64,000 nt of DNA, taken from contig NZ_ABZU01000005.1 in NCBI RefSeq assembly GCF_000173655.1, forward strand, positions 1 through 64,000, given 5' to 3'. The first letter of the stretch is position 1; each line of letters starts with the position of its first letter. The notes under the pieces were generated by a model. That model worked only from the letters and a program-made list of their open reading frames with translations, was not told the origin of the DNA and did not search any database. The stretch is from Corynebacterium amycolatum SK46 (GTDB lineage: Bacteria > Actinomycetota > Actinomycetes > Mycobacteriales > Mycobacteriaceae). The position numbers and the translations under genes were made by a program. Shown piece by piece: positions 6,459 through 56,941 of this stretch.

Positions 6459-6654
6459 TTTCTAGAAAATTTTTAAAAACTTACTTAGCTGATAGAAAAT
6501 GGGTTAATCTCTCAACTAAGAAAACTCAATGACCGATGAAACCACCCAAAATTCAAGGCAGGGAGAGATTCCCAGCTGTTCCACTGGTTTACAGAAGTCA
6601 CAGAGTGTAGTTTCATAAACAGTATTGACTTAATGCACACGAGGAGTCCTCAAC

Positions 6655-6849
6655 ATGGCATACGAAACTGATTCCGAGCAGCGTCGTAGCGTTGGCCCTG
6701 CCCTGGCCTCGGCGCTCATTGGCGCCCTTCTCGGTGGTGCCGCTATCTTCGGCATCGGCCAGGCTCTGACCGAAGACCGAATTCCGGAAGCACAGGCTGT
6801 TTCCACCGATGACGCTCTGCTTGGCGGTGTCGAGTACGGTCAGCGTTAA
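6655..6849 (+). CDS. DUF2613 small membrane/secreted protein (Rv0236A-like)
   Basis: A 64-residue protein with one hydrophobic segment (about 14-38, Gly/Ala rich) and a polar tail. It matches the DUF2613 family that sits next to aftD in mycobacteria (Rv0236A) and corynebacteria. A strong GAGGAG ribosome site precedes ATGGCATACG. The aftD gene starts 29 bases downstream on the same strand, so co-transcription is likely. The function is unknown. The conserved pairing with AftD suggests an accessory role in that enzyme's assembly (inference). Confidence 0.85.
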   Translation: MAYETDSEQRRSVGPALASALIGALLGGAAIFGIGQALTEDRIPEAQAVSTDDALLGGVEYGQR

Positions 6850-6878
6850 GCCTTTAACGCTAACCCTCCTTTAAAGCT

Positions 6879-10469: not shown

Positions 10470-10475
10470 AAGCCG

Positions 10476-11768: not shown

Positions 11769-11964
11769 AGTACTTTCTTACACGGATACCAGAATGAGTA
11801 AAATCACTTGTATTTTATTATGAAATAAGTCCTGTTCAGGCCGGTTTTTCCAAAATTCTTTTGTTTTCCCGACAAGTTATTTTTAAAAAACGCACCACAT
11901 AACTCCTAACTTCCTGCTAGGTTTTGCAGCAGAAAGTTACGTACAGTTAAAGGACTATCCGCTG

Positions 11965-13125
11965 ATGAAGAGAACTCTCGGACATGCACTGATTATCATC
12001 GGTGCTGCATTGATTGTCATTGCCGTCCTTCTGCCAACCTTCCTGGTGCCTCGCCTCCGGGTCATCCCACTTGACACTGTGAGCGACACCGTCACGGAGG
12101 TGCGCGACGGCACTCTGTTGGACTCCAGCCAGCTGGGCAAGAATGAGCCAACGCCAAACCGCAAGAATGACCCGCGCTGCAAGGCAGAGACGGACGAAGA
12201 GAAGCGCGATCTCCCGGTCCACTGCTTCATCAATGACAAGACCCCTATCCAGTCGAAGCGCCACGTGGAGATTGAGGAGCCGGCTGACGACAAGATTGCA
12301 ACCCTCCAGGTCGGTACCACTCTGCTGCGCGATGACCGCGAAGAGCCGAAGAACCTCATCAACGCGACCCTCGACCGCATCACTGTTGACCGCAGCACTG
12401 CGTACCCGGTAGATGACCCGATCTCCAGCGTTGCTATTAACGCACCGCAGGGTGGTTCGGACACCAAGCCGCCGACGTTCACTCGTCCGGGCATCCAGTA
12501 CCAGTTCCCGTTTGGTGCTGAGAAGAAGTCCTACCCGTACTTCGATGTTCAGGCTATGCGTAACTTCGAGATTGACTTCGTCGGTGAGGAAACTCAGGAT
12601 GGCGTCAAGGTCTACAAGTACTCCATGACCATTCCGCCGCAGAACCTCTACGAGTCCCTGACCGAACACTTCACTCGCGACGGCCGCAAGCTCACCGAGG
12701 CTGACAAGTCCTCGCTGGCTTCCATGCGCCTGAGCTTCCCGGCTCACAAGTGGGGCCTGGAGGGTGACGACGACGTCGAGTTGGATCGTTACTACACCAA
12801 CGTCCGTACTGTCCGCGTCGAGCCGACCTCTGGTGTGATTGTCAACGGTACTGAAGAGATGTTCATGTACTACGCCAAGGACGACAAGGAAGCTGAAGAG
12901 ATTGCTTCCAAGGCTGGTCGTGAAAAGGAGGCCAAGGAGCAGAACCGTACCGCGATGAAGTACACCGCTCAGTGGGACGAAGGCTCCAAGGGCCGCCAGA
13001 TGGACCGCGCTAAGGAAGCACGTAAGTCGCTGACTATCGGCGGCACTGTCGCACCGTGGGTCCTCGGTATCCTCGGCCTGGTCCTCATCGTGATTGGCTT
13101 CCGTGTTCGCAGCAAGTCTGCCTAA
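11965..13125 (+). CDS. DUF3068 membrane-anchored protein (NCgl2760/Rv0227c/PgfA-like)
   Basis: A 386-residue protein with a membrane helix at each end (about 8-28 and 358-380) and a single extracytoplasmic domain between, so both termini face the cytoplasm. This is the DUF3068 topology. The corynebacterial homologue NCgl2760 is needed for lipomannan maturation and lipoarabinomannan synthesis. The mycobacterial one (PgfA, MSMEG_0317) is linked to MmpL3 and polar growth. A good AAAGGA ribosome site precedes ATGAAGAGAACT. The coding region is rich in Asp, Glu and Lys, and lies in the conserved envelope locus. Confidence 0.85.
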   Translation: MKRTLGHALIIIGAALIVIAVLLPTFLVPRLRVIPLDTVSDTVTEVRDGTLLDSSQLGKNEPTPNRKNDPRCKAETDEEKRDLPVHCFINDKTPIQSKRHVEIEEPADDKIATLQVGTTLLRDDREEPKNLINATLDRITVDRSTAYPVDDPISSVAINAPQGGSDTKPPTFTRPGIQYQFPFGAEKKSYPYFDVQAMRNFEIDFVGEETQDGVKVYKYSMTIPPQNLYESLTEHFTRDGRKLTEADKSSLASMRLSFPAHKWGLEGDDDVELDRYYTNVRTVRVEPTSGVIVNGTEEMFMYYAKDDKEAEEIASKAGREKEAKEQNRTAMKYTAQWDEGSKGRQMDRAKEARKSLTIGGTVAPWVLGILGLVLIVIGFRVRSKSA

Positions 13126-13206
13126 GACGCCAAACTACGGTGCCTCAGGCTCTCGCTTACCCTAAGTATCACTGAGGAAAGCGAAAAATAATTTAATATA
13201 GGGCAC

Positions 13207-15039
13207 GTGACACAACGTTTCCGCACTACTCTGACCCAGTCGGCTCGCTCTCATTCGGAGCGAGTCGCCTGGGTTTTTGTGTTGTCGTGGATTCTCTTGC
13301 TGACCGCTGCCGTTTGCTGGCCTCTCTTTGCACCCCACAAGGCCCCGGCTGATGGTCGCTTTGGGGCACCGATGTTCCTGCTGCGTGACATGGTCATCCC
13401 CAATCACCCACCGCTTACCGACGCGGCCCTGGGACTCAGCTCCGCTGCGGCACGAGCTGTTCCGCAAGACACCGCTCTGTGGGCACTGGGCTACTTTGTG
13501 GATGCCAGTCATTGGGTGCGCTTCGGCATGGTTGGCGCCTGTTTGATTGGTGGTCTTGCGGCTGCTGAGCTCGCCCGCAGGCTCACTCGCCACGGCTCGG
13601 GCACCAGTAGCGTATCCGGTGCGAGCCTTGTCCCCATGACTCCGAGCTTGGCCAGCCAGCTGATTGCACCGACGATGCTGCTCTGGAACCCGTTCGTGGT
13701 CGAGCGTTTACTCCAGGGGCAGTGGTCACTGGTCATCGCCGTATTGCTACTTCCGGCAGTTGTTCTGGCAACGCAGATGGGTAGCGCCTTGTGGCGCACC
13801 AGTGCCATTGCCGCTGCGGGCCTCACACCGACCGGTGCCCTTTTGGCTGGTATCACCGGCATTGTTGCCGCTCGCAATAACCGCGACCGCGCTTGGATCG
13901 CGGCCACAACAGTAGCAGTCAGTTCACCGTGGCTGGTGGCATCTTTGCTGAACCCGAGTGCAGCTGGGTCCTCCGATGTGGCTGGCGCTGCCGCATTTGC
14001 GGCCAGAGCAGAGGCTCACGTCGGCACGCTCGGAAGCCTGTTGGGATTGGGTGGCATCTGGAATAAGCAGGCTGTGCCACTGACGCGCGAGGTTGGTTTT
14101 TCGGCGATTATGGTGCTGGCACTCCTGGTGCTTATGGGTCTGGGATTCCGTCGGGTCTGGCATTCGCAGGAGCGCTGGCGGGGGCTGATTATCACTGGCG
14201 CCACGGCCATCGTGCTGGTGGCTCTCGCCGCAACAACGCCGGGCATTTTGATGATGGGTTGGGCGCTCGAGCACATCCCGGGGGCAGGCCTGCTTCGTGA
14301 TGCGCAGAAGTGGATCGCGCTCGCTGTCCCCGCGTATGTCATCCTCGCCGCCAGCGGTGCGGAGTACCTGGCACGCCGCGCTCGCGGCGCCACCGCCAAT
14401 ATCGGCCAGTGGTTGGCTACTGGCGTCAGCGCGCTTATCATCATCGCCGCTGTCCCCACGCTGCCCGCCGATGTCGCTCCGCTCCGCCCCATTCCGTCAT
14501 GGGAGGGCTGGTCGGCGGTTTCCGGTGTGGTCGCGCTTGACGACGATCACGTTGCGGTTCTACCTGCCGGTTCTTACCGCATTATTGATGGGCGTCCTGT
14601 CCTCGACCCGGCTACGAAGATTTTGCCCGCTCCGGTGGTGAGCTCTGGCGAACTGATTGTCTCTGGGCAGTCGGTGTCTGGCGAGGGAGCCACAACCGTT
14701 GAGCGCACGCTGCTCGGTGGTGCGAAGAGGCAGGAGGAGCTTGAGTCTGCGCTCCAGAGTCTTCGAGACCAAGGCGTTGGCTGGGTCCTAGTGGAGAATT
14801 CGCCCGGCAACTTCGGCGACTCCGCTGACATTGTGGCAGCGTTAGATCCCGTCTATGAAACCCCTGACCTGCAACTATACCATGTCCCCGGCGTTATCGA
14901 GCCGGCCACACAACCAAGCCCGGGGGCCTATGCAGCTGCGTGGACAGCCTTTGGAATCTGGACTCTTTGCCTACTCGCTGGGCTGCTGGCGGGACTACTG
15001 ACTGGAGTAATGGAAGCGCTACTGCCCCGCCGCAGGTAG
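13207..15039 (+). CDS. Conserved polytopic membrane protein (Rv0226c-like)
   Basis: A 610-residue membrane protein starting at GTG. About ten to twelve hydrophobic segments fill residues 20-430. A periplasm-type domain (about 440-570) follows, then a final helix (575-605). It corresponds by position and layout to mycobacterial Rv0226c, between the DUF3068 gene and the GT4 gene. The fold resembles GT-C-like membrane proteins but no catalytic motif could be pinned down, so no activity is claimed. Its 3' end overlaps the convergent glycosyltransferase gene by 21 bp. The upstream ribosome site is weak. Confidence 0.75.
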   Translation: MTQRFRTTLTQSARSHSERVAWVFVLSWILLLTAAVCWPLFAPHKAPADGRFGAPMFLLRDMVIPNHPPLTDAALGLSSAAARAVPQDTALWALGYFVDASHWVRFGMVGACLIGGLAAAELARRLTRHGSGTSSVSGASLVPMTPSLASQLIAPTMLLWNPFVVERLLQGQWSLVIAVLLLPAVVLATQMGSALWRTSAIAAAGLTPTGALLAGITGIVAARNNRDRAWIAATTVAVSSPWLVASLLNPSAAGSSDVAGAAAFAARAEAHVGTLGSLLGLGGIWNKQAVPLTREVGFSAIMVLALLVLMGLGFRRVWHSQERWRGLIITGATAIVLVALAATTPGILMMGWALEHIPGAGLLRDAQKWIALAVPAYVILAASGAEYLARRARGATANIGQWLATGVSALIIIAAVPTLPADVAPLRPIPSWEGWSAVSGVVALDDDHVAVLPAGSYRIIDGRPVLDPATKILPAPVVSSGELIVSGQSVSGEGATTVERTLLGGAKRQEELESALQSLRDQGVGWVLVENSPGNFGDSADIVAALDPVYETPDLQLYHVPGVIEPATQPSPGAYAAAWTAFGIWTLCLLAGLLAGLLTGVMEALLPRRR

Positions 15040-16197
15040 CAACTTGTCCAGTGTTGGGTTTTCCAAGACATTCAGAACTGCCTCGCCGGTCTTGTCCCAG
15101 CCAAACTCTGCGGCACGCGCGACGCAGGCCTTGGACATGGCGCGATGCAGTTCGCCGTTATCGAGAATCTGCCGCGTCTTGGTAATTAGGTCCGCTTCAT
15201 CGCTGGCCAGCAGGCCAGTTTCACCGTCGTTGACCGAATCGCGCAAACCCGCCGAGGAGCGGTAACCGACCGTCGGCACGCCGTGCTGCGCTGATTCGAT
15301 GACGGCGAGCCCCCAGCCCTCCTTGCGCGAAGGCATCAGGTGCAGACACGCCTTGGAGAGGATGCGGTGTTTGTCCGCCTCGGTGACCTGCCCGTGGAAT
15401 ACCACGTGGTCCGAAACACCCTTGTCACGGGCATATTCCACGAGGTTGTCGTGCCACCATCCCGAGCCAATAACATCGAGAATCGCACCTGGCCGATCTT
15501 GTACAAGATCTGCAAGCACATCGATGGCGTGCTCAATCTGCTTATGCGGGACCAATCGCGACAGCGTCACCAGATGCGGCGCTGGACCGTCGCACTCGGA
15601 TAGGTCCGCCATGATTTCAGTCGACTGCAACTCCTCCGGAATCGGGTCCACACCATTGCGGATTACCGCGATACGCCCCGGAGACACTCCGAGTCCTACC
15701 AGTTCAGCGGCACTTGGCTCGGAAACGGTGATGTAGCGGCAGCGGCGGTGAATCATCGGCGACAGACGCGACTCGATGAACCACCCCAGCTTGCTAATAA
15801 TCGGCCCTGCCACTGGCCACTGTTCGCGGTGGCAGTGATGTGTCAGCAGCACCGTCGGCGCGCCGGAGAAAATCCGCGCGAAGAAGGGGACACCGTTTTG
15901 GGTATCGACCACGACATCCGGCTTGCCGCCGAGCGCCTTGGCAATTGGGCCCACGCCAAATCGCGCACCCAGCATCGCAGTCCAGGAGCGCACGTAGACG
16001 GAGAAGTTTCCACCAGCGCGGGAGAAAGTCACACCGTCACGACGCGAAAGGGCTGGTGCGCCTGGGTAGTTGGCCGTGCGGAACACCACAGTATGGCCTT
16101 GGTCGGCAAGGTAACCTGCGACGCGCTCCAAATAGCGCTCACTACCTCCACCTTCGGGATGGCCAGTGTCGCGCCAACACAACAGTAAGATTTTCAT
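15019..16197 (-). CDS. GT4-family glycosyltransferase (Rv0225-like)
   Basis: A 392-residue GT-B glycosyltransferase. The N-terminal Rossmann domain starts MKILLLCWRDTGHPEGGGSE, with the glycine loop that contacts the acceptor or nucleotide. The C-terminal domain has the donor-binding E-x7-E motif in EGWGLAVIES followed by HGVPTVGY. Members use nucleotide-activated sugars at the cytoplasmic face. In the conserved envelope locus it is the Rv0225 equivalent, whose substrate is not established here. It is divergent from the methyltransferase gene and converges on the Rv0226c-like gene with a 21-bp overlap. Confidence 0.85.
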   Translation of the reverse strand: MKILLLCWRDTGHPEGGGSERYLERVAGYLADQGHTVVFRTANYPGAPALSRRDGVTFSRAGGNFSVYVRSWTAMLGARFGVGPIAKALGGKPDVVVDTQNGVPFFARIFSGAPTVLLTHHCHREQWPVAGPIISKLGWFIESRLSPMIHRRCRYITVSEPSAAELVGLGVSPGRIAVIRNGVDPIPEELQSTEIMADLSECDGPAPHLVTLSRLVPHKQIEHAIDVLADLVQDRPGAILDVIGSGWWHDNLVEYARDKGVSDHVVFHGQVTEADKHRILSKACLHLMPSRKEGWGLAVIESAQHGVPTVGYRSSAGLRDSVNDGETGLLASDEADLITKTRQILDNGELHRAMSKACVARAAEFGWDKTGEAVLNVLENPTLDKLLPAAGQ

Positions 16198-16277
16198 AAC
16201 AATATGAGCCTAACGCTCGGCGCGACTTTCGTTGCCGCTTTAGCTCAAATCCATACTCCCAAACCCAACCAGTCCAT

Positions 16278-16283
16278 TAGATT
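16278..16283 (+). promoter_or_regulatory. Candidate -10 element for leaderless start of the methyltransferase gene
   Basis: TAGATT fits the TANNNT -10 pattern and ends 7 bases before an in-frame GTG at 16291. This spacing would put transcription start at the start codon, the usual arrangement of leaderless actinobacterial mRNAs. It supports the shorter start over the ATG at 16204. Confidence 0.4.
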
Positions 16284-16290
16284 GTTTGAC

Positions 16291-17163
16291 GTGACCAGCT
16301 TTCGCTTTCCCGCTTTTATCGTTCCGCCCGCTCTGAAAGAGCTCCGCAGCTTTGCTACGCTGTCGCGCTCATTCGGGCTGCTCAACGACTTCAAATACGA
16401 GCAAACCGATCCCGATATCTTCTACGGGCACCTGGCCGAGGACACCATCGGCCTGCTGGAAGGCATCGCGGCTGGGGCGAATGCTTCGGTGGGCACCGCC
16501 GGTACGGCGGGGTCGGCGGGCGCAGGGGGCACGTCGTCAAGCGTTACGACGAATACCGCACTGCGCGGCAAACGCATCCTTGATGTCGGCGGCGGCCCCG
16601 GTTACTTTGGCCGCGCATTTGCCCAGCGTGGCGTGGAGTATTACACCTGCGAACCCGATGTGGGCGAGATGGCGGCGGCGGGTATCAAGCTGGAGTCGTC
16701 GGTACGCGGATCGGGGCTGGAACTGCCATTTCGCGATGATGCTTTTGACCTGACGTACTCGTCGAACGTTGCCGAGCACGTGCCCGAGCCGTGGACGATG
16801 GGCGAGGAAATGCTGCGTGTGACCAAGCCGGGCGGGCTGGTCGTTTACTCGTACACCATTTGGTACGGCCCGTTCGGCGGCCACGAGATGGGGATGACGC
16901 ACTACCTGGGCGGCGACCGCGCGCGGCGCATGTATGAGAAGAAGCACGGCAAGCGACCGAAGAACTACTTTGGCGAGTCCCTGTTCAAGGTCGGTTGCGG
17001 TGAAGGCTTGAAGTGGGCACGCGCTGCGGCGGAGGCTGGCGACTGCGAACTACTGGCCGCTTTCCCGCGCTACCACCCATGGTGGGCCTGGTGGATGGTG
17101 CACGTGCCGGTGCTGCGCGAGTTCGCGGTGTCGAACCTGGTGCTGGTGCTGCGGAAGCGGTAG
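16291..17163 (+). CDS. mtrP: Class I SAM-dependent methyltransferase, MtrP-like
   Basis: About 290 residues with one Rossmann methyltransferase domain. The SAM-binding motif I is ILDVGGGPGYFGRAF, followed by an acidic residue after YYTCEPD and the LPFRDDAFDLTYSSNVAEHV segment. The C. glutamicum homologue at this position (NCgl2764, MtrP; Rv0224c in mycobacteria) is needed for efficient transport of trehalose mycolates. The methylated substrate is not shown by sequence. GTG at 16291 is chosen because of the leaderless-type -10 just upstream. The alternative ATG at 16204 adds 29 residues, lies 6 bp from the divergent glycosyltransferase start and has no ribosome site. Confidence 0.78.
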   Translation: MTSFRFPAFIVPPALKELRSFATLSRSFGLLNDFKYEQTDPDIFYGHLAEDTIGLLEGIAAGANASVGTAGTAGSAGAGGTSSSVTTNTALRGKRILDVGGGPGYFGRAFAQRGVEYYTCEPDVGEMAAAGIKLESSVRGSGLELPFRDDAFDLTYSSNVAEHVPEPWTMGEEMLRVTKPGGLVVYSYTIWYGPFGGHEMGMTHYLGGDRARRMYEKKHGKRPKNYFGESLFKVGCGEGLKWARAAAEAGDCELLAAFPRYHPWWAWWMVHVPVLREFAVSNLVLVLRKR

Positions 17164-44960: not shown

Positions 44961-45641
44961 TTAGTCCTCCGGTGCGAGCTCGCTTTCAGTAACCCACTTG
45001 TGGTTCTTCATGGTCATGCCATCTTCGTCGATATCAACCATGTAGACCGGCTCCTGGGTGGAGTAATCAACAGTGCCCTTGGCACCCTTCATGCCCGCCA
45101 TATGCTCGGCATTGATGGTGATCTCGGAGCCGTCGGCAAGCGGAGCCTCGCCTGGGTTCTCCAGCTCCTCATGAACGACCCAACGGTGATCCTTCACCGG
45201 TTCACTGCCATCGGTCGGGGTGTAGGAAACGGAGTAGGTAGTAGTGTTGAAAACTCCAACAACCTTGCCTTCTGCACCCTTCATGCCCGGCATGTGATCG
45301 GCGAGAACCTGCACCTCACTGCCGACCGGGAACTTCGCATTGTCCGCCGGAATCATTCCCTCTGGAGCCGGACCGCCATCGGCCGGATGATGATGGTCTG
45401 CCATCGCGTCGTCGCTATCGTCTCCATGATTGCCGTGGTCGCCATGCTCATCGGCATCGTCCATATCATCCATGTCGTCATGGTCCTCAGAGCTGGTGGC
45501 CGACACGGAAGAGCTAGTTTCGCTAACAGTGCTGCTTTCCTCAGTATTAGCCGAATCATCGGAGGAGCAACCGGCCAGCACAAGGACGCTGGCGGCACCC
45601 GCGGCTACGAGAGCATCTAGTGGTCGAATATTCTTTGCCAT
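44961..45641 (-). CDS. YdhK-family lipoprotein with two DUF1541 repeats
   Basis: 226 residues. A signal peptide ends in the lipobox VLAGCSSD. A Ser/Thr then His/Asp-rich linker (about 40-100, with runs such as DDMDDMDDADEHGDHGNHG) looks suited to metal binding. Two DUF1541 copies follow, marked by ADHMPGMKGAEGKVVGV with DHRWVVHEELENPG and by AEHMAGMKGAKGTVDY with NHKWVTESELAPED. It is anchored on the outer face of the membrane. The family is often found with copper or heavy-metal genes, but none adjoins it here. AAAGGAG precedes the ATG. Confidence 0.88.
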   Translation of the reverse strand: MAKNIRPLDALVAAGAASVLVLAGCSSDDSANTEESSTVSETSSSVSATSSEDHDDMDDMDDADEHGDHGNHGDDSDDAMADHHHPADGGPAPEGMIPADNAKFPVGSEVQVLADHMPGMKGAEGKVVGVFNTTTYSVSYTPTDGSEPVKDHRWVVHEELENPGEAPLADGSEITINAEHMAGMKGAKGTVDYSTQEPVYMVDIDEDGMTMKNHKWVTESELAPED

Positions 45642-45717: not shown

Positions 45718-47217
45718 TTATCGCCCGCGGCGGACGGAAATCGTCCAACCAGCCTCGCCGGTCTGCTCGAAGTTGGTGACCTCGTGGCCATCCTTCGCAG
45801 CCCAGCGCGGAATCGCATCCGTGGCCTGGGTGCAGTCGAATGGAATCACCAGCTCCTCGCCGATCTCAATCTTGCCAATCGCGTCCTTGGCCTCGATCAG
45901 CGGGAATGGGCACACCGCGCCGACGGTGTCGAGCTCGTAACGCCCGCCGCCCAGTGGCTTGAGCTTGCCGTCTTCCTGCTTTACGACGCTCCGGTCGAGC
46001 AACGCCACCGGCGCGACAGCAAAGGCACCCGCCAGCGGGGAGGCCTCGGTGCCAGCGGCACCGGCACCTTCGCTACCCGGCAGGGACACAGGCGAAGTAG
46101 CAGCCGAAGTGACCGGAGCCGTTGCCGATACCGCCGTGTCGTTGGTGGCCGTGTCGTTGGTGGTGGAAGGGGTGCTCGGGACGTCGTTAAGCGAAGGTGC
46201 GGACGGCTTCAGCCAAAGCTTTGCGGCGATAGCGACACCTGCGGCGATGGACGCCAGCGCAAGCCAACCCTGGTAGCTGAACAGCGAGGTCTGAACCATG
46301 CCGTTGCCGACGGTGCAGCCGCCGGCCCAGGCAGCGCCGACGCCCATGCAGATGCCGCCGACGACCGAGCGTGCGCCCTGGGTTGCGTCCGGGACGCGGA
46401 GGCGGAACTCGCCAGAGGCCTTAGCCGCGATGAAAGAGCCGACGAGGATGCCGAGGACGAGGAGGACGCCCCAGTCGAAACGCTCGGTGTCACCAGTGAC
46501 AACATAGTTGGCAAGGTTGGAGGACGGGGTCGTGATGCCGAGGCCGTCGTTGCGGCCGGTGGCAGCGGACAGCGGCCATGCGATAACGCCAAGTACACCG
46601 ACGATGGCGGCGGTGGCGTACACATGCCAGGCCTTTTCAGCCAGGATGTGTGCCAGGCCGGTCTTGCGCGGCGCCAGAGTCACCGGACGCGGTCCGGAGA
46701 ATTCTTCGCGCAGGTAACGGACGGCGAGGTAAGCCGTCAGTGCGCTGAGAGCGATGACCAGTGGCCAGATGCTAATGCCGAGCGAGGCATGGATACTGGT
46801 CAGTCCGACTGTGCGGTCCTTCAGGGCATCCTGCAGGCCGCCCAGGAAGCCAGTCTTCATGGCAGCAGCGGACAGAGTATAAAAGACCAGTGCAATCCAG
46901 GAGCCGATCAGGCCCTCACCGGAGCGGTACCAGGTGCCCGAGGCGCAGCCACCGGCCAGGACGATACCCAGTCCGAAGATAACGCCACCGACGATAACGG
47001 CCAGTGGTGCCAATTCCTTGTATTCGGGAGTAATCACGCCGGCGCTGGTCAGGGCGGCCAGGCCGATGGCGTGGACGGAAATAACAATCAGCAGGGCGAC
47101 GAAGCCGCGCCAGCTGCGCTGAGTGAAGATATCGCGCAAGAAGCCGGTGACGCAGAAGCGTCCTCGCTGCATAACAAAGCCGAGCACGGCGCCCAGCGCT
47201 AGTCCTGAGATGAGCAT
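45718..47217 (-). CDS. YeeE/YedE thiosulfate-type transporter fused to TusA-like domain
   Basis: 499 residues. The N-terminal ~370 residues form a YeeE/YedE transporter with about ten helices and the conserved cysteines in MQRGRFCVTG (Cys22), LAGGCASGTWY and WAGGCTVGNGM. A low-complexity Thr/Ser/Ala linker (about 345-400) joins it to a TusA/SirA-like domain whose active Cys lies in VGAVCPFPLIEAKDAI. YeeE imports thiosulfate, and TusA-type proteins carry sulfur as persulfide. The fusion suggests that sulfur is handed over directly after uptake. AGGAGAAACACTC precedes the ATG. It is the only gene of its transcript apart from ydhK downstream (76-bp gap). Confidence 0.9.
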   Translation of the reverse strand: MLISGLALGAVLGFVMQRGRFCVTGFLRDIFTQRSWRGFVALLIVISVHAIGLAALTSAGVITPEYKELAPLAVIVGGVIFGLGIVLAGGCASGTWYRSGEGLIGSWIALVFYTLSAAAMKTGFLGGLQDALKDRTVGLTSIHASLGISIWPLVIALSALTAYLAVRYLREEFSGPRPVTLAPRKTGLAHILAEKAWHVYATAAIVGVLGVIAWPLSAATGRNDGLGITTPSSNLANYVVTGDTERFDWGVLLVLGILVGSFIAAKASGEFRLRVPDATQGARSVVGGICMGVGAAWAGGCTVGNGMVQTSLFSYQGWLALASIAAGVAIAAKLWLKPSAPSLNDVPSTPSTTNDTATNDTAVSATAPVTSAATSPVSLPGSEGAGAAGTEASPLAGAFAVAPVALLDRSVVKQEDGKLKPLGGGRYELDTVGAVCPFPLIEAKDAIGKIEIGEELVIPFDCTQATDAIPRWAAKDGHEVTNFEQTGEAGWTISVRRGR

Positions 47218-49880: not shown

Positions 49881-52553
49881 TTATCCCGCGTTCGATGCTG
49901 CCTCACTAGTAGTGAGCCATTGAGCTACAGCGATATCGTGCGGAGGATCGAGTAGAGCAAAGTGATCAATACCAAGTCGATCAAAAGTTGCTGACGGACA
50001 GATTTTTGACCATGCTCCGCTCGGCGCCACGCGCTCTATCTGCGCATGTGCGGTTTCTCCTCTGTCTGCGACTGCCCCGTCATAAGCAATATCTTCCCCA
50101 GTCGCGCCTACAAGGATTCGCGTTTGGGGCAGTTGCCCAGCAATCTCATCTACGTCGCAGGATCTGAGAATAGAAGCATTGAGACGATAAATCTCCCATG
50201 CGTTACGCAGAGCTTGGGTTCCTTCATTCATCGTGGCCATTCCTGTAGCTACTGCGGCATTGAGAAGTTCGTCCCAGGCAATGTCGTCTTCGCGAACTTC
50301 GGCTACCTCACCAGTGGCTACGGGGCCACGAAGAAATCGCGCACCGTCACCAGGTATAGCCAATCCTACCTGAGCAAATACGAGGAATGCCGTCCTTTCC
50401 GGAGTGGCATGTCCACTGGGGTCTGGCGGATCGATAAGGTGAGCCGAACAGCAGGTGAACCCACGGGAAGCGAGCTCGACTGCTACTGCACGCGCATAGA
50501 CTCCGCCGAGGGAGAACCCAGAGAGACGCAAGTCTGCATCAATTGGAATTTCTGCAGCAATCGCGTCAGACATAGCGGAGACCGCCGTGGCGAATCCGCC
50601 TTCGAGATCCTCCCGCGCATTCTCACATGCACTGACCTGGTGAGAATCCGGCAGCAAACGAGACAAACGTAAATACCGGGTAACGGCACCCGACATCGGA
50701 GGCAGAAACACCCAGTGCACTTCCTTAACAGAATGGTCACCTGTGCTGTCGCTCTGTGCTGTCCCGCGCAGCCGCACGAGCCCTTGACCTGACGACAAAT
50801 GTCCTGCATGCACCCCAGCACGAGCCCGGTGAGAAGCATCGATGAGATCTCTCACATTCCCACCGACGATGACCGGTAAGGGCACATCTACATCTAGCTC
50901 GCCGAGAAGAGCCCCACGCACCGAAACAGCGGTTAGTGAATCCGCTCCAGTCTCAGCAAAGCTACGAAGATCTTCCGGATCACCTACATACCGCCTCCAA
51001 ATCTCCGAAATTGCGAAGTCGAGATCCAAACCGGCGCGGGCGGAGTCCCTATCTGCGCTACGAGCAAGACATCGTAATAGACTCGCAGTCGCTTCTGGAT
51101 TGCGCTTACCTCGCGCCGTCAGCGGAATCTCGCTGGCCATACCTAGTAGCCGAGGCACCGCATACCAGGGAAGTTCGGTCTTGCAACGACGACTGACCGC
51201 ACGTTTGATCATATCCTCGCCGCTGCTGACTTCTTCAACTGCAGAATCTTGGCTGTTCCAAGACTCGGAGCTGCGTACGGTGTCAGGGACAATAAGGCAC
51301 CCCAACGCACCATCGACGCGTACAACATGGGCTGCGCTCACCCCATCCACAGAGGTAACAATCCCTTCCACCGTGGCCGGGTCGACACGGTACCCGGATA
51401 CCTTCAGCATTCGGTCACGACGCCCTTCGATAACCCACCTTCCGTCTGCAAGTACTTGAGCGGCATCTCCAGTGGCATAGGTATCTCCGTTATGCGATTC
51501 GAAGCCACCTACACGCTTCTCTAAGTACCCAAGCCCTACTTGCACTCCACCAATGATGAGCTCGCCATCTCGCAGGGAATAGGTAACACCAGGAAGTGGA
51601 GTACCAACGGTAATGGGTTCATCCGGCGCAAGATTGCCATACGAAGTCACAACTGTGCATTCGGTCGGCCCGTAACCATTGAGCAGCCGTGCTTCCGGCA
51701 GTGCTGCGGCCCAACCACGGATGGCGACGGGGTCAGGGGCTTCACCACCGGCCATCACAAGGCGCACAGAAGACTGATGAAATGCTGATGCTGCAGAAGT
51801 GTCGGCATCCATAGCAGTACCGACAGCATTGAAGACACCAGTGGGGAGGCTAAGTACGGTGATTCCACGGGCACAAACTTCGGCAGCAAGAGCAAATGGA
51901 TCTGTTGCGATAAGTCCTGGAGAAGCTGGTATGACTGGGCACCCAGCATGTAGAGAAGTGCCCACCTGCTCCATGGCCAGGTCAAAGGCCGGATTGGACA
52001 GCAGCAATCGACGATCTTCGGAGGTCAATTCGTATAAATCGCAAGTCGATTGGACAAAAGATTTGAATGCACGCCGTCCGATAACAACGCCTTTCGGTGT
52101 CCCGGTTGAGCCGGACGTGTAGGCGATATATGCCGGGATGTCGTTGTTACTTGCTGATGCAAACTGCGATGTCAGTCCGAATCTCCGAGGTTGGGAATCT
52201 GGAGACGCTAAGTCCAACATTGGACAGGGCTGAAAGGATTCGCCTTGCTCTGACTGTGAAATCGTCCATGCGAGAACAGCTGCTGGAAAAAGTTCGCTGA
52301 GCAGAACTGGCTGCAGCATTTCAGGTAGGTGAGGATCAAGTATGGCAGGGACGAGGCCACGTGCCCACAGTTCGGCTAGGGTCGCCGCATGCGCCTGAGG
52401 AACGAGATCACGTATTGCAACCACACTCCCGGGGGGAAGGGCCGAGTTATCCAGCAGAGTGGAAAGGGCGTTACGGCATGCCTCTTGCATATTTGAATCG
52501 TCCCCGTTGCTCGCTACTGAACGGTCATCCAAAGCGATATCTGATGCATACAT
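49881..52553 (-). CDS. Stand-alone NRPS-like protein: adenylation - carrier - thioesterase (A-T-TE)
   Basis: 890 residues. The adenylation domain (about 20-500) has YTSGSTGTPKGVVIG, GYGPTECTV, YATGDAAQ, GRRDRMLKVSGYRV and the catalytic Lys483 in TARGKRN. The carrier domain (about 510-575) has the phosphopantetheine Ser539 in TGADSL. The thioesterase (about 610-890) has nucleophile Ser681 in GFSLGG, a candidate acid in HLIDPPD and His864 in GIDHFALL. There is no condensation domain. Asp191 at the amino-group position predicts an alpha-amino acid substrate. A by-eye ten-residue code is D-L-E-S-V-A-G-V-V-K, where Glu195 suggests a basic side chain (tentative). AAGGAG precedes the ATG, 17 bp after the exporter gene. 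Confidence 0.88.
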   Translation of the reverse strand: MYASDIALDDRSVASNGDDSNMQEACRNALSTLLDNSALPPGSVVAIRDLVPQAHAATLAELWARGLVPAILDPHLPEMLQPVLLSELFPAAVLAWTISQSEQGESFQPCPMLDLASPDSQPRRFGLTSQFASASNNDIPAYIAYTSGSTGTPKGVVIGRRAFKSFVQSTCDLYELTSEDRRLLLSNPAFDLAMEQVGTSLHAGCPVIPASPGLIATDPFALAAEVCARGITVLSLPTGVFNAVGTAMDADTSAASAFHQSSVRLVMAGGEAPDPVAIRGWAAALPEARLLNGYGPTECTVVTSYGNLAPDEPITVGTPLPGVTYSLRDGELIIGGVQVGLGYLEKRVGGFESHNGDTYATGDAAQVLADGRWVIEGRRDRMLKVSGYRVDPATVEGIVTSVDGVSAAHVVRVDGALGCLIVPDTVRSSESWNSQDSAVEEVSSGEDMIKRAVSRRCKTELPWYAVPRLLGMASEIPLTARGKRNPEATASLLRCLARSADRDSARAGLDLDFAISEIWRRYVGDPEDLRSFAETGADSLTAVSVRGALLGELDVDVPLPVIVGGNVRDLIDASHRARAGVHAGHLSSGQGLVRLRGTAQSDSTGDHSVKEVHWVFLPPMSGAVTRYLRLSRLLPDSHQVSACENAREDLEGGFATAVSAMSDAIAAEIPIDADLRLSGFSLGGVYARAVAVELASRGFTCCSAHLIDPPDPSGHATPERTAFLVFAQVGLAIPGDGARFLRGPVATGEVAEVREDDIAWDELLNAAVATGMATMNEGTQALRNAWEIYRLNASILRSCDVDEIAGQLPQTRILVGATGEDIAYDGAVADRGETAHAQIERVAPSGAWSKICPSATFDRLGIDHFALLDPPHDIAVAQWLTTSEAASNAG

Positions 52554-52570
52554 TGTTCTCCTTATAGTAT

Positions 52571-53767
52571 CTAGATAGATTCCGTCGTCGCCGCTGAGAG
52601 CTCTAGACGGTTATGATTTCGCTTTCTACTACCCAGCAGCGTTATTGCGATGAGAGCAATGACGACGACGAATCCGAGTACAGCTTTAGTGCCCGCTGCA
52701 ACTGCAAGCGCTGACCCTGCTGCCGCAGCAATTTGCTGACCAAGCATTAAACTGGACGAAACCTTTTTTGCACAGCCGGGATTCGAAATTGTGCCAATAT
52801 ACAGCCCTGGAATCATTACAGCGAATCCGAATACAATGCCGAGGGCGAGTAAAGCTGCCAGAATGACTGGGACTGATGAAGATGGAATGGCAACTGCTAC
52901 ACATGCAATGATGACTAGTCCGCATACCGCCACGCCCCTTATAAGGGGAATCAAAGAAAGGTTGATGCGGAGACCCGAAACTATGATTGATGTCACAATC
53001 ATTCCTGCGGCAAGAAAACTCGGCGGTAAGGCAGACGTTGACAGTGCAGCCCCGGAGGCTACCAAAACGGAACTGGCCGCAACGAGTGACGCGAAGACAC
53101 CAGCGAACATTGCAGGAGTCAGCACAAAATACTGCCACTGCCCTTTCGCCTGTTCAGAATCTGACGTAGCGGAGGCCACTGACTGTCTGACTCCACCTTC
53201 CCCTTGATGTGAAGTTACTGCAAAGAGACCCACACCTAAGAGAAGAATCACCGGAGCAATAAGCCACATCATACGCACGTGTGAGGAAAACAGTGGTAGG
53301 TGCGCGTATAGCGGAACTACGAGAGATGCAATACCCCCTGCGAATGGCCACAGTGCAACGATACGGTGGAATGTGCTGGGATCAGATGTAGATTTCGCCA
53401 GCGGAAGAAATCCACCAAGAATGATGCCTGCACACATTCCGAAAAGCAGTCTGCAAACTCCCATACCCCAGACTGATTCGGCGCTAACGGTACCCCAGGA
53501 AAAAAGTAAAACAAGAGGCATAATCATATTCAAGCCTCGGACAGTCAAGATCCGAGAATAGAATGTGACGACAAGCCCGAGTGCCAGTCCTAAGAGGTAG
53601 ATAGGAGTTCCCAGTAGTCCTGTTAGCCCCATGGTCTCGAGGACGGAGCCGACCAGTGGCGAAACTCCGTTATCAGTGGACAACGCAATGATGATGAGTA
53701 CGGCCCCGAGCTGGTGCCCAATAGCTCTCGAGAAGAGCGGTACCCGCGCCTTGAAGCCCCTAACCAT
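52571..53767 (-). CDS. MFS transporter of the A-T-TE operon (likely product exporter)
   Basis: 398 residues with about twelve helices in two halves. The first half holds a YSRILTVRGLNMIMPL loop and the second starts near 205 after a short polar linker. It is an MFS protein with no family-specific motif that I can assign. Its ATG lies within the end of the dioxygenase gene (8-bp overlap) and its stop is 17 bp before the A-T-TE gene, so it is part of the same transcript. Export of, or self-protection from, the pathway product is the natural inference. Uptake of the amino acid precursor is an alternative. Confidence 0.82.
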   Translation of the reverse strand: MVRGFKARVPLFSRAIGHQLGAVLIIIALSTDNGVSPLVGSVLETMGLTGLLGTPIYLLGLALGLVVTFYSRILTVRGLNMIMPLVLLFSWGTVSAESVWGMGVCRLLFGMCAGIILGGFLPLAKSTSDPSTFHRIVALWPFAGGIASLVVPLYAHLPLFSSHVRMMWLIAPVILLLGVGLFAVTSHQGEGGVRQSVASATSDSEQAKGQWQYFVLTPAMFAGVFASLVAASSVLVASGAALSTSALPPSFLAAGMIVTSIIVSGLRINLSLIPLIRGVAVCGLVIIACVAVAIPSSSVPVILAALLALGIVFGFAVMIPGLYIGTISNPGCAKKVSSSLMLGQQIAAAAGSALAVAAGTKAVLGFVVVIALIAITLLGSRKRNHNRLELSAATTESI

Positions 53768-54755
53768 CGATAAGATGATTGGTGCCAGGAACCACGTGAG
53801 CTAGGTGAGGGACAATGGAGTCCACATTTACTGTCTTCATAATCCACCTACGCGAGAGCTCATCGGGAGCCTTTAGTTCGCCTACATCCTTCGCATGAAT
53901 GCAGTGATTATTAAAAGTAATTAACATGTCGCCGACAGGTAAGAAGATTGGCAGTTTCAAGTCATGAAGCATGTTGGAAACTTCAGCAACCGCAGCCTCT
54001 GCCTCAGGGTCGATACCAGTGGTGCGCCCTTCAAAGAACCGCAGATTTTGGAGTCTGTCCAAAATCGGGTGAAGTGAGGCCTCACCAAGCTCTTTATCAC
54101 CGACAACGCTTAAATCGTCAAAGGGGGTGTGGAATCGTGGCTGGCGCAGCAGCTCCCTAAGAGTTGGACTGCACCTTTCAATCAAATCAGCATTCCTCAC
54201 GAACGAGGTATAAACCTCATTTCGCGAATCATTCCGCATACTGATCATGTGCACAGCATCGGGGCGAACATAGTGATTCGCTAAATCCTTATGGAATCCA
54301 ATTGCCCCGCGAGCCTTCTGTGATTGCGTCGAAAACATCCCTCGTTTAGGGTGAATATCTTGATGAACATCTCCATCATTAACATTGCGGTAGCCGATTG
54401 AAGGTGTTCCACAGAGCTCCGCGAGTGCTGTCAACATACATTCAGCCACCCACGTGCGTTTTTGCACGTACTTCTGCCCAATCGGGTCATCGTTGCCTAA
54501 TTCGGGAATTTCAGAGTCAATAGGTGCCCCGGCAATCCAGACAACAGGCTGACGATCTCTGTCGCGTCCTTGAAGAATACTGCAAAACTCTGCAAATCTT
54601 CTGAAAACATTTTCGGAGGACACACACTGTCTCACTGCATGTACATGTGCTTCGTACTGCCGATACGGCGATTGCCAGATTTTTTCAAATAGCGAACGAA
54701 TTTCATCGCGCTCCTCTTCCGTGAACCGAAACTCAGCTTCCACAGACCATGGCAT
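53760..54755 (-). CDS. TauD/clavaminate-synthase-like Fe(II)/2-oxoglutarate dioxygenase (AsnO/VioC-type amino acid hydroxylase)
   Basis: About 331 residues, the usual length for AsnO/VioC-type hydroxylases. The metal ligands appear as H155-x-D157 in GFHKDLANHY and distal His287 in FNNHCIHAKD. The 2-oxoglutarate-binding Arg is 302 or 303 in SRRWIMKTV. AsnO/VioC members use H-x-E; this one has H-x-D. These enzymes hydroxylate the beta carbon of free amino acids such as Asn or Arg for nonribosomal peptides. The start at 54755 (MPWSVEAEF) is fixed by an AAGGAG seven bases upstream; a TTG at 54788 is rejected. It is the first gene of the operon. Confidence 0.85.
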   Translation of the reverse strand: MPWSVEAEFRFTEEERDEIRSLFEKIWQSPYRQYEAHVHAVRQCVSSENVFRRFAEFCSILQGRDRDRQPVVWIAGAPIDSEIPELGNDDPIGQKYVQKRTWVAECMLTALAELCGTPSIGYRNVNDGDVHQDIHPKRGMFSTQSQKARGAIGFHKDLANHYVRPDAVHMISMRNDSRNEVYTSFVRNADLIERCSPTLRELLRQPRFHTPFDDLSVVGDKELGEASLHPILDRLQNLRFFEGRTTGIDPEAEAAVAEVSNMLHDLKLPIFLPVGDMLITFNNHCIHAKDVGELKAPDELSRRWIMKTVNVDSIVPHLAHVVPGTNHLIDG

Positions 54756-54786: not shown

Positions 54787-54817
54787 AATATAGAAACGGT
54801 ACCGAAACCCTTGTCAC
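54787..54817 (-). promoter_or_regulatory. Candidate promoter of the dioxygenase/MFS/A-T-TE operon
   Basis: On the minus strand, GTGACA (54812-54817) and TATATT (54787-54792) are spaced by 19 bases, about 32 bp before the dioxygenase start codon. Both hexamers are close to the sigma-A pattern, but the spacing is slightly long. Confidence 0.4.
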
Positions 54818-54819
54818 GG

Positions 54820-55505
54820 ATTTGTGCTTTTTGCGATTTTCCAACTCTAGAAATTCTGTCTTAATCGTGAAACGATTACCATCATCGGCAGTGTGTACTC
54901 AACACAGACCTTCGAGGCCCTCGCGCAGACCCCGTTCCTTGATGCTGTCCATATCATCTAATCTGCAGATAGGCTATAATTTCCTTAGTGGCCATATGAC
55001 CATATGTCTATCCAGCTCTTTGGCCAGACAGACACTTATTCTTCCCATAGACGGGGCGCACTCGTCATTGCATATACCGGCCTCAATACTCCTGCGCTAG
55101 GAATGCTTACAGTTCAACTTCTCGGGGCGGAGCACAGCTAATTTCTTGAATGATTTCACCGATAATTCGAGGAGACTTCTGTCGATAATGACTGGGGAAC
55201 CCGGGAGCGAAATCAGTGCCGAGTTGTCTGATGATCCTTGCCGGGGCAATACATCGCTATGAAATGGGTATCGCAGGCGACTTCGATCTGTGGGACTTTG
55301 GAGAATGATTCCTTCGTGTTCATCCCATATTGGATGACCAAAAGTGTTTATACGTGCACTTTGCGGCACGAAGCAAAACGGCACAGATGAAAGATGTCAC
55401 ATAGCACTCATGGAGGCGCCATAGGAGCGACAGTGCTGGCTGGCTAGAAATGAAGCAAATATATCTTTCATAACGACAGGTCTTCACCTACGTTACGTCC
55501 ACTAC
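54820..55505. other. Non-coding spacer inside the accessory island
   Basis: About 690 bases between the dioxygenase operon and the AbiE remnants. It includes a plus-strand TATAAT (about 54978-54983). A minus-strand open frame of 95 codons (55097-55384) has no ribosome site and no recognisable family. It has the look of decayed DNA, with GC below the core genome. No intact gene is supported. Confidence 0.5.
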
Positions 55506-56125
55506 ATGAAGGTTTCTGAGACTCAAGCCATTTTGGCCGCATACCTTTTACCTGCAACATGGTTTAATCACGTCGGCGCACGCGCCAAAAAAGGAATCAA
55601 CACCACGACAATGACGTTTCTGACGAAGGAATACATAGCCGAATCCGCCGAGGTGTGTACATCCTTTCTCGTGTCGTGGAAGATTCGCTCACGGAACTCC
55701 GGGCGACGTGGCTTTTCGACAGACTCAGGGGGGCCTTAGCGAGGAGCACTTTCAGGAAAAACAAACCAATCGTTATCTCTCATTCTCGGCCGTGAGCCTC
55801 TTCATGTTGGGAGTTATCACTCCATCGACGCATATTTTTACTTCTTCAAAGTGGAAACAATCATCGGCGGCTGATATTTCCCATCACACCACTAACCTGC
55901 CGGACGTCGATTGGGAAACTATCCATGGTCTTCCGGTGACGACCGTGGCACGGCCAATCCGCGATCTGGCGAGAGACAACCTTGATGAAGATCACCTCCA
56001 CCATGTGAGCGCGGACAGAATTCATAACCAACGCCTCCGCCCTTCAGAGACTGCCAAGGTGATTGATTCCTATGCCTACTAATATGGCAGTGACTCAGGT
56101 GATGGCATAGTGACAGAATCGCTGC
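55506..56125 (+). pseudogene. AbiEi-type (type IV antitoxin) gene remnant, frameshifted
   Basis: AbiEi homology is spread over three frames. Frame one gives YLLPATWF and TTTMTFLTKEY. After a shift near 55650 the next frame gives RGVYILSRVVEDSLTELRATWLFD and IVISHSRP. After a second shift near 55790 the third gives HIFTSSKWKQSSAADISHH, LPDVDWETIHGLPVTTVAR and IRDLARDNLDEDHL. A stop codon then interrupts an AY-x-SGDG tail near 56081. The GVYxLSR, TELRAxWL and GLPVTTxxRxIxDL motifs are those of actinobacterial AbiEi. The gene cannot make a full protein. Confidence 0.75.
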
Positions 56126-56403
56126 GACATTTTCCGAAAAATGGAAACATGACGGCGCAACAGAAGCCGAACTCTACAGCATGAAGATTATCTATGATGA
56201 TTGGGGCAATGCTATGGGAAGCGCTGCATTGTCAGCGCTGACTCAGCAGATGCCAGGAAAATGGTTGTCAAATAGCAAATTACTACTGCCCAGATTACAG
56301 CGTTGATGCAAAGTGCGATGAAATCAGTTCCACCACATGAGGAACAAACCTAAGACTAGCGTTGACCCAGTTTATGAATCGCCTGGTCGGGAGGACAGCG
56401 TGT

Positions 56404-56941
56404 CATGAGCTCCGCGTCGCCAGTCGCTAGTATTACCCGCAAGCGGATCCAACTCCTGGCGAAGCTTCGTAATGGAGCGCGACGCCAATCGGTGATGGTA
56501 GAGATGTTCAGCACCAATTTGTATTCGACATGTTCCTAACCCGAATGCTTGCTCATGCAAACTGTGATCGGGTTCTGAAAGGTGACACGAGTCCTCTTCT
56601 GCGTATTGGCTCTGGCCAACGCAGCCGTGATATTGGCCTAGATCGCCGGGAGCAAGCCCTCCGGCAGAAGCCGCAGGCGCTTGTCAAGGAGCCCGGATCA
56701 ACGGATTCCGGTTTTTAGCTTCAATTTGAAAGAACCTGCCAGAGATAACCGGAATCCGATGGTTCGGGCTCGAGAGGCGTTCAATGTAATTCTCAGAATC
56801 GGAACACAGCAGGTCATTCTCTTCGGCGTGGATATCTGTACCCCACAACGCCTCGATGCACTAATCGACCTAGTGAAAAGCAATCCGGTCATTGATTATG
56901 AAGCGCTCCCAGCCGACACCTTCCAGCTGCGATTGCGTTGA
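56404..56941 (+). pseudogene. AbiEii-type (type IV toxin, nucleotidyltransferase) gene remnant
   Basis: Downstream of the AbiEi remnant in the same orientation, as in intact abiE operons. One frame gives SITRKRIQLLAKLRNGARRQ, the next HQFVFDMFLTRMLAH, RVLKGDTSPLLRIG and QRSRDIGLDRR. AbiEii toxins have FVLKGGTxLLxR...RxTxDIDL here, so the catalytic GG and DID are changed to GD and DIG as well as the frame being broken. A third frame (from about 56699) ends in a 60-80 residue open stretch with GTQQVILFGVDICTPQRLDAL. Assignment of that last part to AbiEii is uncertain. Confidence 0.65.

What the first reader, a model, noticed from the sequence alone, without database searches (positions are those of the whole stretch)
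49881..54755. Minimal three-gene pathway: AsnO-type dioxygenase, MFS exporter and condensation-free A-T-TE synthetase
Three overlapping or tightly spaced genes form one transcript: an Fe(II)/2-oxoglutarate amino-acid hydroxylase, an MFS carrier and a single-module NRPS-like protein with adenylation, carrier and thioesterase domains but no condensation domain. All key residues appear intact (Lys483, Ser539, Ser681, His864 in the synthetase; H155, D157, H287 and R302/R303 in the dioxygenase). The likely logic is to activate one amino acid, hydroxylate it (free or carrier-bound), release it or self-condense it at the thioesterase, and export it. Known A-T-TE proteins (ralfuranone or terrequinone type) use alpha-keto acids; here Asp191 predicts an alpha-amino acid. 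I know of no described corynebacterial product of this kind. Such a compound could act as a signal, an antimetabolite or a metal ligand.
Basis: partly seen in the sequence, partly recalled or inferred. Interest (0 to 1): 0.88.

Follow-up and report, generated by a model that had tools for sequence, protein, structure and literature searches.

The report
Orphan Corynebacterium single-amino-acid metabolite operon
Three adjacent genes in a Corynebacterium look like a tiny pathway that activates one lysine- or arginine-like amino acid, may hydroxylate it, and exports a small product; it is rare and unstudied but built from known kinds of parts, and a sister species has lost the hydroxylase while keeping the other two genes intact.

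Summary
A clavaminate synthase/AsnO-like Fe(II)/2-oxoglutarate oxygenase (54755-53760), an MFS carrier (53767-52571) and an A-PCP-TE synthetase without a condensation domain (52553-49881) lie in a tight minus-strand array with every cited catalytic residue present. The A-domain code DLESMGGVVK matches 7 of 10 positions of the code read from epsilon-poly-L-lysine synthase (DAESIGTVVK) and 7 of 10 of a published Arg/homoarginine code, so a basic amino acid is the best guess. Of 242 genus genomes searched only the own one has the complete trio. One relative (G010) keeps synthetase and carrier (80 and 73% identical; pairwise dN/dS 0.15 and 0.23) but only a frameshifted 250-nt relic of the oxygenase. 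So synthetase plus carrier look like the core and the oxygenase an accessory; 'activate, hydroxylate, hydrolyse' cannot be the whole story there. Close oxygenase relatives accompany other NRPSs and MFS carriers in four other genomes. That such enzymes only use alpha-keto acids is too narrow: indigoidine synthetase (A-Ox-T-TE) uses Gln. Most likely a basic amino acid is loaded, optionally hydroxylated, released by the TE as a lactam or other non-hydrolytic product, and exported. Substrate, TE chemistry and product are untested. New variant of a known kind.

The parts
53760..54755 (-). Fe(II)/2-oxoglutarate oxygenase of the clavaminate synthase/AsnO/VioC-like family, 331 aa; metal ligands H155, D157, H287; 2OG-binding R302/R303
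   Evidence: (start and Shine-Dalgarno)
52571..53767 (-). MFS carrier, 398 aa; presumed exporter
   Evidence: MFS_1 below cut-off; crude hydropathy
49881..52553 (-). single-module NRPS-like synthetase A-PCP-TE, 890 aa, no condensation domain
51084..52481 (-). adenylation domain (about aa 25-490): D191 = GrsA Asp235, K483 = GrsA Lys517; pocket code DLESMGGVVK
   Evidence: literature codes
50838..51011 (-). peptidyl carrier domain (Pfam aa 515-572), phosphopantetheine Ser539
49899..50756 (-). thioesterase domain (about aa 600-885; Pfam match aa 616-714): S681 (GFSLGG), D708, H864
   Evidence: triad assignment by motif and spacing, recalled from other TEs

Best explanation
A small specialised-metabolite operon whose core is the A-PCP-TE synthetase plus the MFS exporter. 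The A domain adenylates one basic amino acid (Lys/Arg class) and loads it on its own carrier domain (inferred from domains and code). With no condensation domain and no partner NRPS in the operon, the TE most likely releases the loaded residue by a self-contained reaction other than plain hydrolysis, best guess attack of the side-chain nitrogen to give an amino-lactam, as known for L-Lys in capuramycin biosynthesis; a homo-oligomer or diketopiperazine is second. The CAS/AsnO-like oxygenase is an accessory step that hydroxylates the amino acid (free or on the carrier) in this strain but not in G010. The MFS protein exports the product. Shown by sequence: genes, domains, residues, code, conservation, decay of the oxygenase in G010. 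Inferred: substrate class, TE chemistry, order of steps, export. My estimates: basic substrate 0.65; non-hydrolytic release 0.5; lactam specifically 0.3; oxygenase accessory rather than obligatory 0.7.
For: Operon and residues. Code DLESMGGVVK shares 7 of 10 positions, E239 and S278 among them, with DAESIGTVVK, the code of the own genome's Pls/PosA-family protein (TIGR02353 713 bits against a cut-off of 423) and of the solved epsilon-poly-L-lysine synthase 7wew (read by me from the alignment); 7 of 10 with DVESIGGVTK, given in the Arg paragraph as also taking homoarginine (PMC12283262 passage); 5 of 8 with DAESIGSV of bacitracin Lys (PMC3207962 passage). Core versus accessory: G010 keeps synthetase (80%, dN/dS 0.145; TE 0.106) and MFS (73%, 0.227) as open frames, while its oxygenase is a 250-nt relic with five 1-nt indels and stops. 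Hydrolysing an unmodified amino acid would be futile there, hence non-hydrolytic release. Precedent for L-Lys lactamisation by an NRPS-like module: CapU, as cited in PMC9893682 (passage; original not read).
Against: No enzyme was tested, and no TE residue was found that separates lactam formation from hydrolysis. The code is a nearest-neighbour reading with three mismatches. In the oxygenase, the place where KDO1 and CAS show D-x-[D/E] reads E242-x-R244 (alignment, ambiguous by one residue; that VioC uses D268/D270 there for the guanidinium is recalled), which fits an amide or acid better than Arg/Lys. The closest oxygenase relatives stand near A domains with Gln-type (Bacillus) or aminoadipate-like (G197, G247) codes. 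Codon positions 1/2/3 differ by 0.214/0.155/0.358 in the relic, clearly above the synthetase (0.122/0.091/0.383) but only a little above the MFS gene (0.163/0.133/0.404), so the decay may be fairly recent; pairwise dN/dS cannot separate time before from time after it, and the G010 pair could itself be at the start of decline.
Confidence: 0.4

Rival explanations
1. Carrier-tethered hydroxylation: the amino acid is loaded on the PCP, the oxygenase hydroxylates the thioester-bound residue, the TE hydrolyses it, and a free hydroxy-amino acid (antimetabolite, signal or metal ligand) is exported.
For: The five oxygenases that group together (window, G197, G247, two Bacillus; support 87/98 and 82/95, below the tool's star level) each have an NRPS gene with A and PCP domains adjacent or one gene away and an MFS gene nearby, although these NRPSs differ in layout. 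DdaC acts on substrate tethered to DdaD (PMC12451424 passages).
Against: In G010 the oxygenase is lost and synthetase plus MFS are kept. Three slightly more distant oxygenases (G593, G576, G367) lie in clusters where no A domain was found (tblastn with three A-domain queries, E <= 1e-5, 18-kb loci), so they have no adjacent NRPS carrier.
Confidence: 0.27
2. The oxygenase hydroxylates a free amino acid first; the A domain selects the hydroxylated form and the TE releases a lactone, lactam or oligomer.
For: Characterised CAS-like relatives AsnO, VioC and KDO1 act on free amino acids (recalled; complexes with Lys, D-Arg and hydroxyasparagine are named in the table).
Against: G010 lacks the oxygenase yet keeps the same pocket code apart from V330 to I.
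Confidence: 0.13
3. The synthetase makes a homo-oligomer or cyclic dimer of a basic amino acid, a short analogue of epsilon-poly-lysine or polyornithine.
For: Code similarity to Pls; condensation-free Pls exists in coryneforms (PMC8117764 passages).
Against: Its C-terminus is a TE, not the membrane tandem-domain region of Pls/PosA.
Confidence: 0.1
4. The TE transfers the amino acid to an external acceptor (lipid, sugar, wall component) rather than making a free metabolite.
For: Single-module NRPSs that esterify alcohols with amino acids exist in fungi, though they use a C domain (PMC10720950 abstract and passages).
Against: No acceptor-making gene in the operon; an MFS exporter fits a soluble product better (inference).
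Confidence: 0.05
5. A decaying, horizontally acquired remnant without present function.
For: Very rare in the genus, AT-richer than most of its flanks, 2.2-kb upstream stretch with only fragmentary frames, oxygenase already lost in G010.
Against: All three frames intact here; low pairwise dN/dS of the two shared genes.
Confidence: 0.05

Closest known systems
DdaD/DdaC of dapdiamide biosynthesis (Pantoea agglomerans)
   Same: Small NRPS that tethers one amino acid plus an Fe(II)/2OG oxygenase acting on the tethered residue (PMC12451424 passages)
   Different: DdaD is 578 aa in that paper, which leaves no room for a TE (my inference); substrate is fumaramoyl-Dap; more genes in the pathway. DdaC was not compared with the window oxygenase here
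Indigoidine synthetase BpsA/IndC
   Same: Single module with thiolation and TE domains that activates an alpha-amino acid, Gln (PMC3992020 passage)
   Different: Oxidation domain embedded in the A domain and a DAWQFG-type code; the window protein shows neither
epsilon-Poly-L-lysine synthase (Pls/PosA family)
   Same: Condensation-free; A-domain code 7 of 10 the same; present in coryneforms (PMC8117764 passages) and in the own genome
   Different: Membrane tandem-domain C-terminus (TIGR02353) and no TE; makes a polymer
CapU (capuramycin)
   Same: NRPS-like module that turns L-Lys into a caprolactam
   Different: Known here only from a sentence and a reference title in PMC9893682; domain layout and sequence not checked
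Quinone/furanone-forming A-T-TE synthetases
   Same: Same A-T-TE layout
   Different: Condense two aromatic alpha-keto acids (PMC9047271, start of abstract in the listing); the window A domain has the amino-acid Asp (D191). Bacterial examples are recalled
AMB cluster (AmbA-E, Pseudomonas aeruginosa)
   Same: Exporter, small NRPSs and Fe/2OG oxygenases that modify an amino acid on carriers (PMC4357302 abstract and passages)
   Different: Two NRPSs with condensation domains, two oxygenases, tripeptide precursor
CAS-like oxygenases AsnO, VioC, KDO1, clavaminate synthase, GntD
   Same: Family, metal ligands, 2OG Arg
   Different: Far below the curated cut-offs of the three NCBIfam equivalogs it matches: an unassigned branch

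Membership tests
Clavaminate synthase-like Fe(II)/2OG oxygenases | H-x-D/E...H metal triad and downstream Arg for 2OG | tested here: met
   H155, D157, H287, R303 identical in all 7 aligned sequences, window included
Clavaminate synthase-like Fe(II)/2OG oxygenases | sequence and fold similarity to solved members | tested here: met
   Profile E 3.4e-14 to 5.9e-11; the first 38 Foldseek rows are all KDO, CAS, VioC or AsnO, but from a weak model (pLDDT 59) and with TM-scores under 0.5
GntD, VioC or Cs1 (named equivalogs) | curated score cut-off | tested here: not met
   57.5 vs 345; 23.6 vs 418.6; 52.9 vs 450 bits
AsnO | closest relative and Asn substrate | tested here: inconclusive
   Best profile hit in the PDB but distant; the best single-sequence hit was CAS; substrate untested
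Alpha-keto-acid A-T-TE synthetases | A domain without the amino-group-binding Asp | tested here: not met
   D191 present; the rule itself is recalled
Indigoidine synthetase (A-Ox-T-TE) | oxidation domain and Gln code | tested here: not met
   Pfam at E <= 0.1 shows only AMP-binding, Thioesterase, PP-binding and a weak AMP-binding_C; code differs
Pls/PosA family | TIGR02353 terminal domain | tested here: not met
   TE at the C-terminus; TIGR02353 not among the 25 best of 90 NCBIfam hits, the only ones shown
Pls/PosA family | L-Lys-type A-domain code | tested here: inconclusive
   7 of 10 positions
DdaD/DdaC-type tethered oxidation | oxygenase acts on PCP-bound substrate | not testable with these tools
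   Needs enzymes
Lactam-forming NRPS-like module (CapU-like) | lactam as product | not testable with these tools
   Needs enzymes; CapU sequence not compared

The most novel reading that the evidence does not exclude
A minimal, self-contained lactam (or lactone) synthase: one A-PCP-TE protein turns a single basic amino acid into an exported cyclic amino-acid derivative, hydroxylated in this species and unhydroxylated in G010; that is, the TE of a condensation-free module used as a cyclase on one residue, with exporter and optional oxygenase as the whole pathway.
Probability: 0.2. Interest if true: 0.7.

Novelty: new variant of a known kind. Interest (0 to 1): 0.45.

Why it matters
If active, it would be among the smallest NRPS-based pathways (three genes, two in G010) and would make a cationic single-residue metabolite in a genus from which few such products are described (as far as I recall). 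The G010/window pair is a natural with/without test of what the oxygenase adds. The repeated pairing of this oxygenase branch with differently built small NRPSs and MFS carriers marks a set of uncharacterised clusters that genome mining can follow.

Tried and rejected
Considered and rejected: quinone/furanone-type A-T-TE (Asp191 present); indigoidine type (no Ox domain); Pls type (TE instead of the Pls C-terminus); anti-phage defence (PADLOC: 0 hits for 3 proteins); a known riboswitch upstream (Rfam at gathering threshold: 0 in 2.8 kb); promoter or terminator evidence (not above shuffles; one 15-pair terminator-like hairpin at 49310-49274, downstream of the synthetase, was not tested further).

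Led nowhere: structure prediction of the synthetase from one sequence (pLDDT 37); the oxygenase model is too poor in the pocket for substrate reading (pLDDT under 50 at 118-156 and 209-248). The window MFS carrier has no match in the plasmid collection and no significant blastp match to the four carriers it was compared with, those of G197, Bacillus, Vibrio and G593 (best E 2.6). Plasmid tblastn of the synthetase gave 1827 records, all under 60% identity. Vibrio halioticoli, Staphylococcus epidermidis and Streptomyces oxygenases (25-28%) were followed and fall on another branch. The nine literature searches were for the gene set in Corynebacterium, for tethering, A-T-TE and lactam precedents and for codes; none listed a description of this operon. 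The library is open-access PMC only, and of the listed papers I looked at passages of those cited, not at every one.

Mended on re-checking: gene names for G593, G247 and Bacillus neighbours, first given by eye, were confirmed by Pfam; the Pls/PosA assignment, first made on a part of the protein, was repeated on the whole; an AbiEi-like label for an upstream frame found no Pfam support.
Full report
WHAT IS THERE. On the minus strand three intact genes run in order oxygenase (54755-53760), MFS carrier (53767-52571) and synthetase (52553-49881), overlapping by 8 bp and then separated by 17 nt. The oxygenase ATG at 54755 has AAGGAG six bases upstream. The synthetase has A, PCP and TE domains and no condensation domain in Pfam; the TE score (25.0) is just below its cut-off (26.4), but S681, D708 and H864 are present and kept in an 80% ortholog. 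D191 and K483 take the places of GrsA Asp235 and Lys517 (positions listed in PMC12283262). The oxygenase is clavaminate synthase/AsnO-like, with metal and 2OG ligands identical in all 7 sequences aligned, window included. The operon is AT-richer (45-57% GC in 500-bp steps) than the genes beyond it (53-68%; 8 of 10 steps at 57% or more).

WHO HAS IT. All 242 genus genomes have some A-domain match, but only 2 of 242 have the synthetase itself: the own genome (1984 bits) and G010 (1540 bits); the next match in the list has 109 bits. In an order-wide draw of 348 genomes the same 2 reach E <= 1e-60. The oxygenase matches 4 of 242 genus genomes at E <= 1e-3: own; G197 (45%, full length); G065 (two weak matches, 26-28%); G010 (a fragment with a stop). 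In 397 order genomes 9, own included, reach E <= 1e-15; in 396 phylum genomes 3, own included, reach E <= 1e-30. The complete trio was seen only in the own genome.

THE NATURAL EXPERIMENT IN G010. G010 carries MFS (73%) and synthetase (80%) side by side as open frames in a different neighbourhood. Just upstream lies a relic matching oxygenase codons about 242-325 in several frames with stops; about 250 nt hold five one-base indels, and no trace of the first 240 codons was found in the 1.4 kb examined. The two kept genes, 3.8 kb, have no frame break. Codon positions 1, 2, 3 differ by 0.214, 0.155, 0.358 in the relic, 0.122, 0.091, 0.383 in the synthetase and 0.163, 0.133, 0.404 in the MFS gene: the relic is clearly looser than the synthetase, only slightly looser than the MFS gene. 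Pairwise dN/dS is 0.145 for the synthetase (A 0.144, PCP 0.141, TE 0.106) and 0.227 for the MFS gene (own Nei-Gojobori script). The simplest reading is that synthetase plus exporter kept a function after the oxygenase decayed. The pairwise ratio cannot exclude that most of the constraint predates the loss.

SUBSTRATE. The code is DLESMGGVVK (G010: DLESMGGIVK). The own genome's 1350-aa Pls/PosA-family protein (TIGR02353 713 bits, cut-off 423) and the solved epsilon-poly-L-lysine synthase 7wew (letters read by me from the alignment) both give DAESIGTVVK: 7 of 10 identical, with E239 and S278 kept. DVESIGGVTK, given in the Arg paragraph of PMC12283262 as also taking homoarginine (passage), is also 7 of 10 and shares G322. 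Bacitracin Lys DAESIGSV (PMC3207962 passage) matches 5 of 8. So a basic amino acid is favoured; Lys against Arg or a homologue is open. Against this, the oxygenase shows E242-x-R244 where KDO1 and CAS show D-x-[D/E] (one-residue ambiguity; the roles of the VioC residues are recalled).

RELATED CLUSTERS. In a 17-row tree the window oxygenase joins G197 and G247 (87/98) and then two Bacillus species (82/95). These values are below the tool's star level and the window row is flagged as a long branch, so the support is moderate. All five loci have an NRPS gene adjacent to the oxygenase, or one gene away in the window, and an MFS gene nearby, but of different kinds: A-PCP-TE (window); A-PCP-C with one or two ATP-grasp-type ligases and a FemAB/GNAT-type transferase (G197, whose ATP-grasp match is weak; G247); A-PCP-C-PCP-TE with a phosphopantetheinyl transferase (Bacillus ISL-34; the same NRPS layout and MFS in SD075). 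Codes: G197 DVRHFALLAK by eye and in one locus, DVRDFALLAK in the automatic mapping of three other loci, G247 DVRTFALLAK in the automatic mapping, near DPRHLALLAK for aminoadipate (PMC12283262 passage); Bacillus DAWQFGLVDK and DAWQFGLIDK, the latter identical to a listed Gln code (PMC2866473 passage). The three next oxygenases (G593, G576, G367; 37-38% identical to the window's) lie with an ATP-grasp-type ligase, class-III aminotransferase, KASIII, acyl-CoA dehydrogenase, MFS and FemAB/GNAT-like genes (Pfam for G593 plus the G576 transferase; the rest by similarity) and no A domain was detected. The window carrier has no significant match to the four carriers compared; G197 and Bacillus carriers match weakly (64 aa, E 6e-4) and G247's resembles G197's (27%). 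The oxygenase branch is thus repeatedly found in small-peptide or amino-acid clusters and need not always work on an NRPS.

HOW IT MAY WORK. The basic amino acid is adenylated and loaded (inferred). Because G010 does without the oxygenase, and hydrolysis of an unmodified amino acid would be futile, the TE more likely makes something itself: a lactam (precedent CapU for L-Lys, cited in PMC9893682, original not read) or a small oligomer. Hydroxylation here is an added step, on the carrier as for DdaD/DdaC (PMC12451424 passages) or on the free amino acid. Export by the MFS protein is inferred from the operon only.

COMPARISON AND NOVELTY. By the tests in the membership table it is not the keto-acid A-T-TE type, not indigoidine synthetase and not Pls, but each part belongs to a known kind and the logic has precedents. 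The searches named under Tried and rejected listed no description of the operon. New variant of a known kind, moderate interest. Product, substrate and TE chemistry are unproven.

Noticed in passing
L048 4714-12309 (G197 = Corynebacterium sp. MAG S30M_Sa_12) and L062 about 7474-17012 (G247): Matching uncharacterised clusters in two different families of the order: MFS, oxygenase (45 and 50% to the window's), A-PCP-C NRPS with an aminoadipate-like code, one or two ATP-grasp-type ligases (two with L-amino acid ligase C-terminal domains in G247) and a FemAB/GNAT-like transferase.
   Followed up: partly
L052 and L053 (Bacillus sp. SD075, ISL-34), about 8968-16303: Oxygenase (38-39%), A-PCP-C-PCP-TE NRPS with one Gln-type A domain but two carrier domains, MFS and (Pfam-checked in ISL-34) a phosphopantetheinyl transferase: perhaps a homodipeptide or cyclic dipeptide pathway.
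   Followed up: partly
L063, L064, L065 (G593, G576, G367), 18 kb each: Conserved cluster without a detected A domain: ATP-grasp-type ligase, oxygenase, class-III aminotransferase, KASIII, acyl-CoA dehydrogenase, MFS, FemAB/GNAT-like transferase.
   Followed up: partly
L044 (S. epidermidis plasmid pML7049-5), L046, L066, L067, L068, L070, L071: A separate oxygenase branch: LeuA-like matches in 7 of 7 loci (a short one at the locus edge in L068), isochorismatase-family and FAD/NAD(P)-binding matches in 5 of 7; L066 also has NRPS genes nearby. In S. epidermidis leuCD, cupin, aminotransferase and MFS are added, on a plasmid.
   Followed up: partly
L045 (Vibrio halioticoli plasmid), about 5004-12669: A-PCP-C NRPS, oxygenase (28%), MFS and a double ATP-grasp protein in a row; record unannotated.
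   Followed up: partly
window 54790-56940: 2.2-kb AT-richer stretch with only fragmentary frames between the operon and an aldehyde dehydrogenase gene (Aldedh). Frame 55639-56082 (+) reminded me of an AbiEi-type antitoxin end (recalled), but Pfam gave no hit.
   Followed up: partly
G000:C46 about 88-92 kb (L072 3997-8049): 1350-aa Pls/PosA-family protein with the same A-domain code as epsilon-poly-L-lysine synthase; the same code was read in loci of 11 other genus genomes, with open frames of similar length, so poly-basic amino acid synthesis may be more widespread in Corynebacterium.
   Followed up: partly
window 45718-47217 and 44961-45641: A sulphur-transport (YeeE/YedE-like) protein fused to a C-terminal TusA domain, beside a His/Asp-rich DUF1541 protein.
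   Followed up: partly
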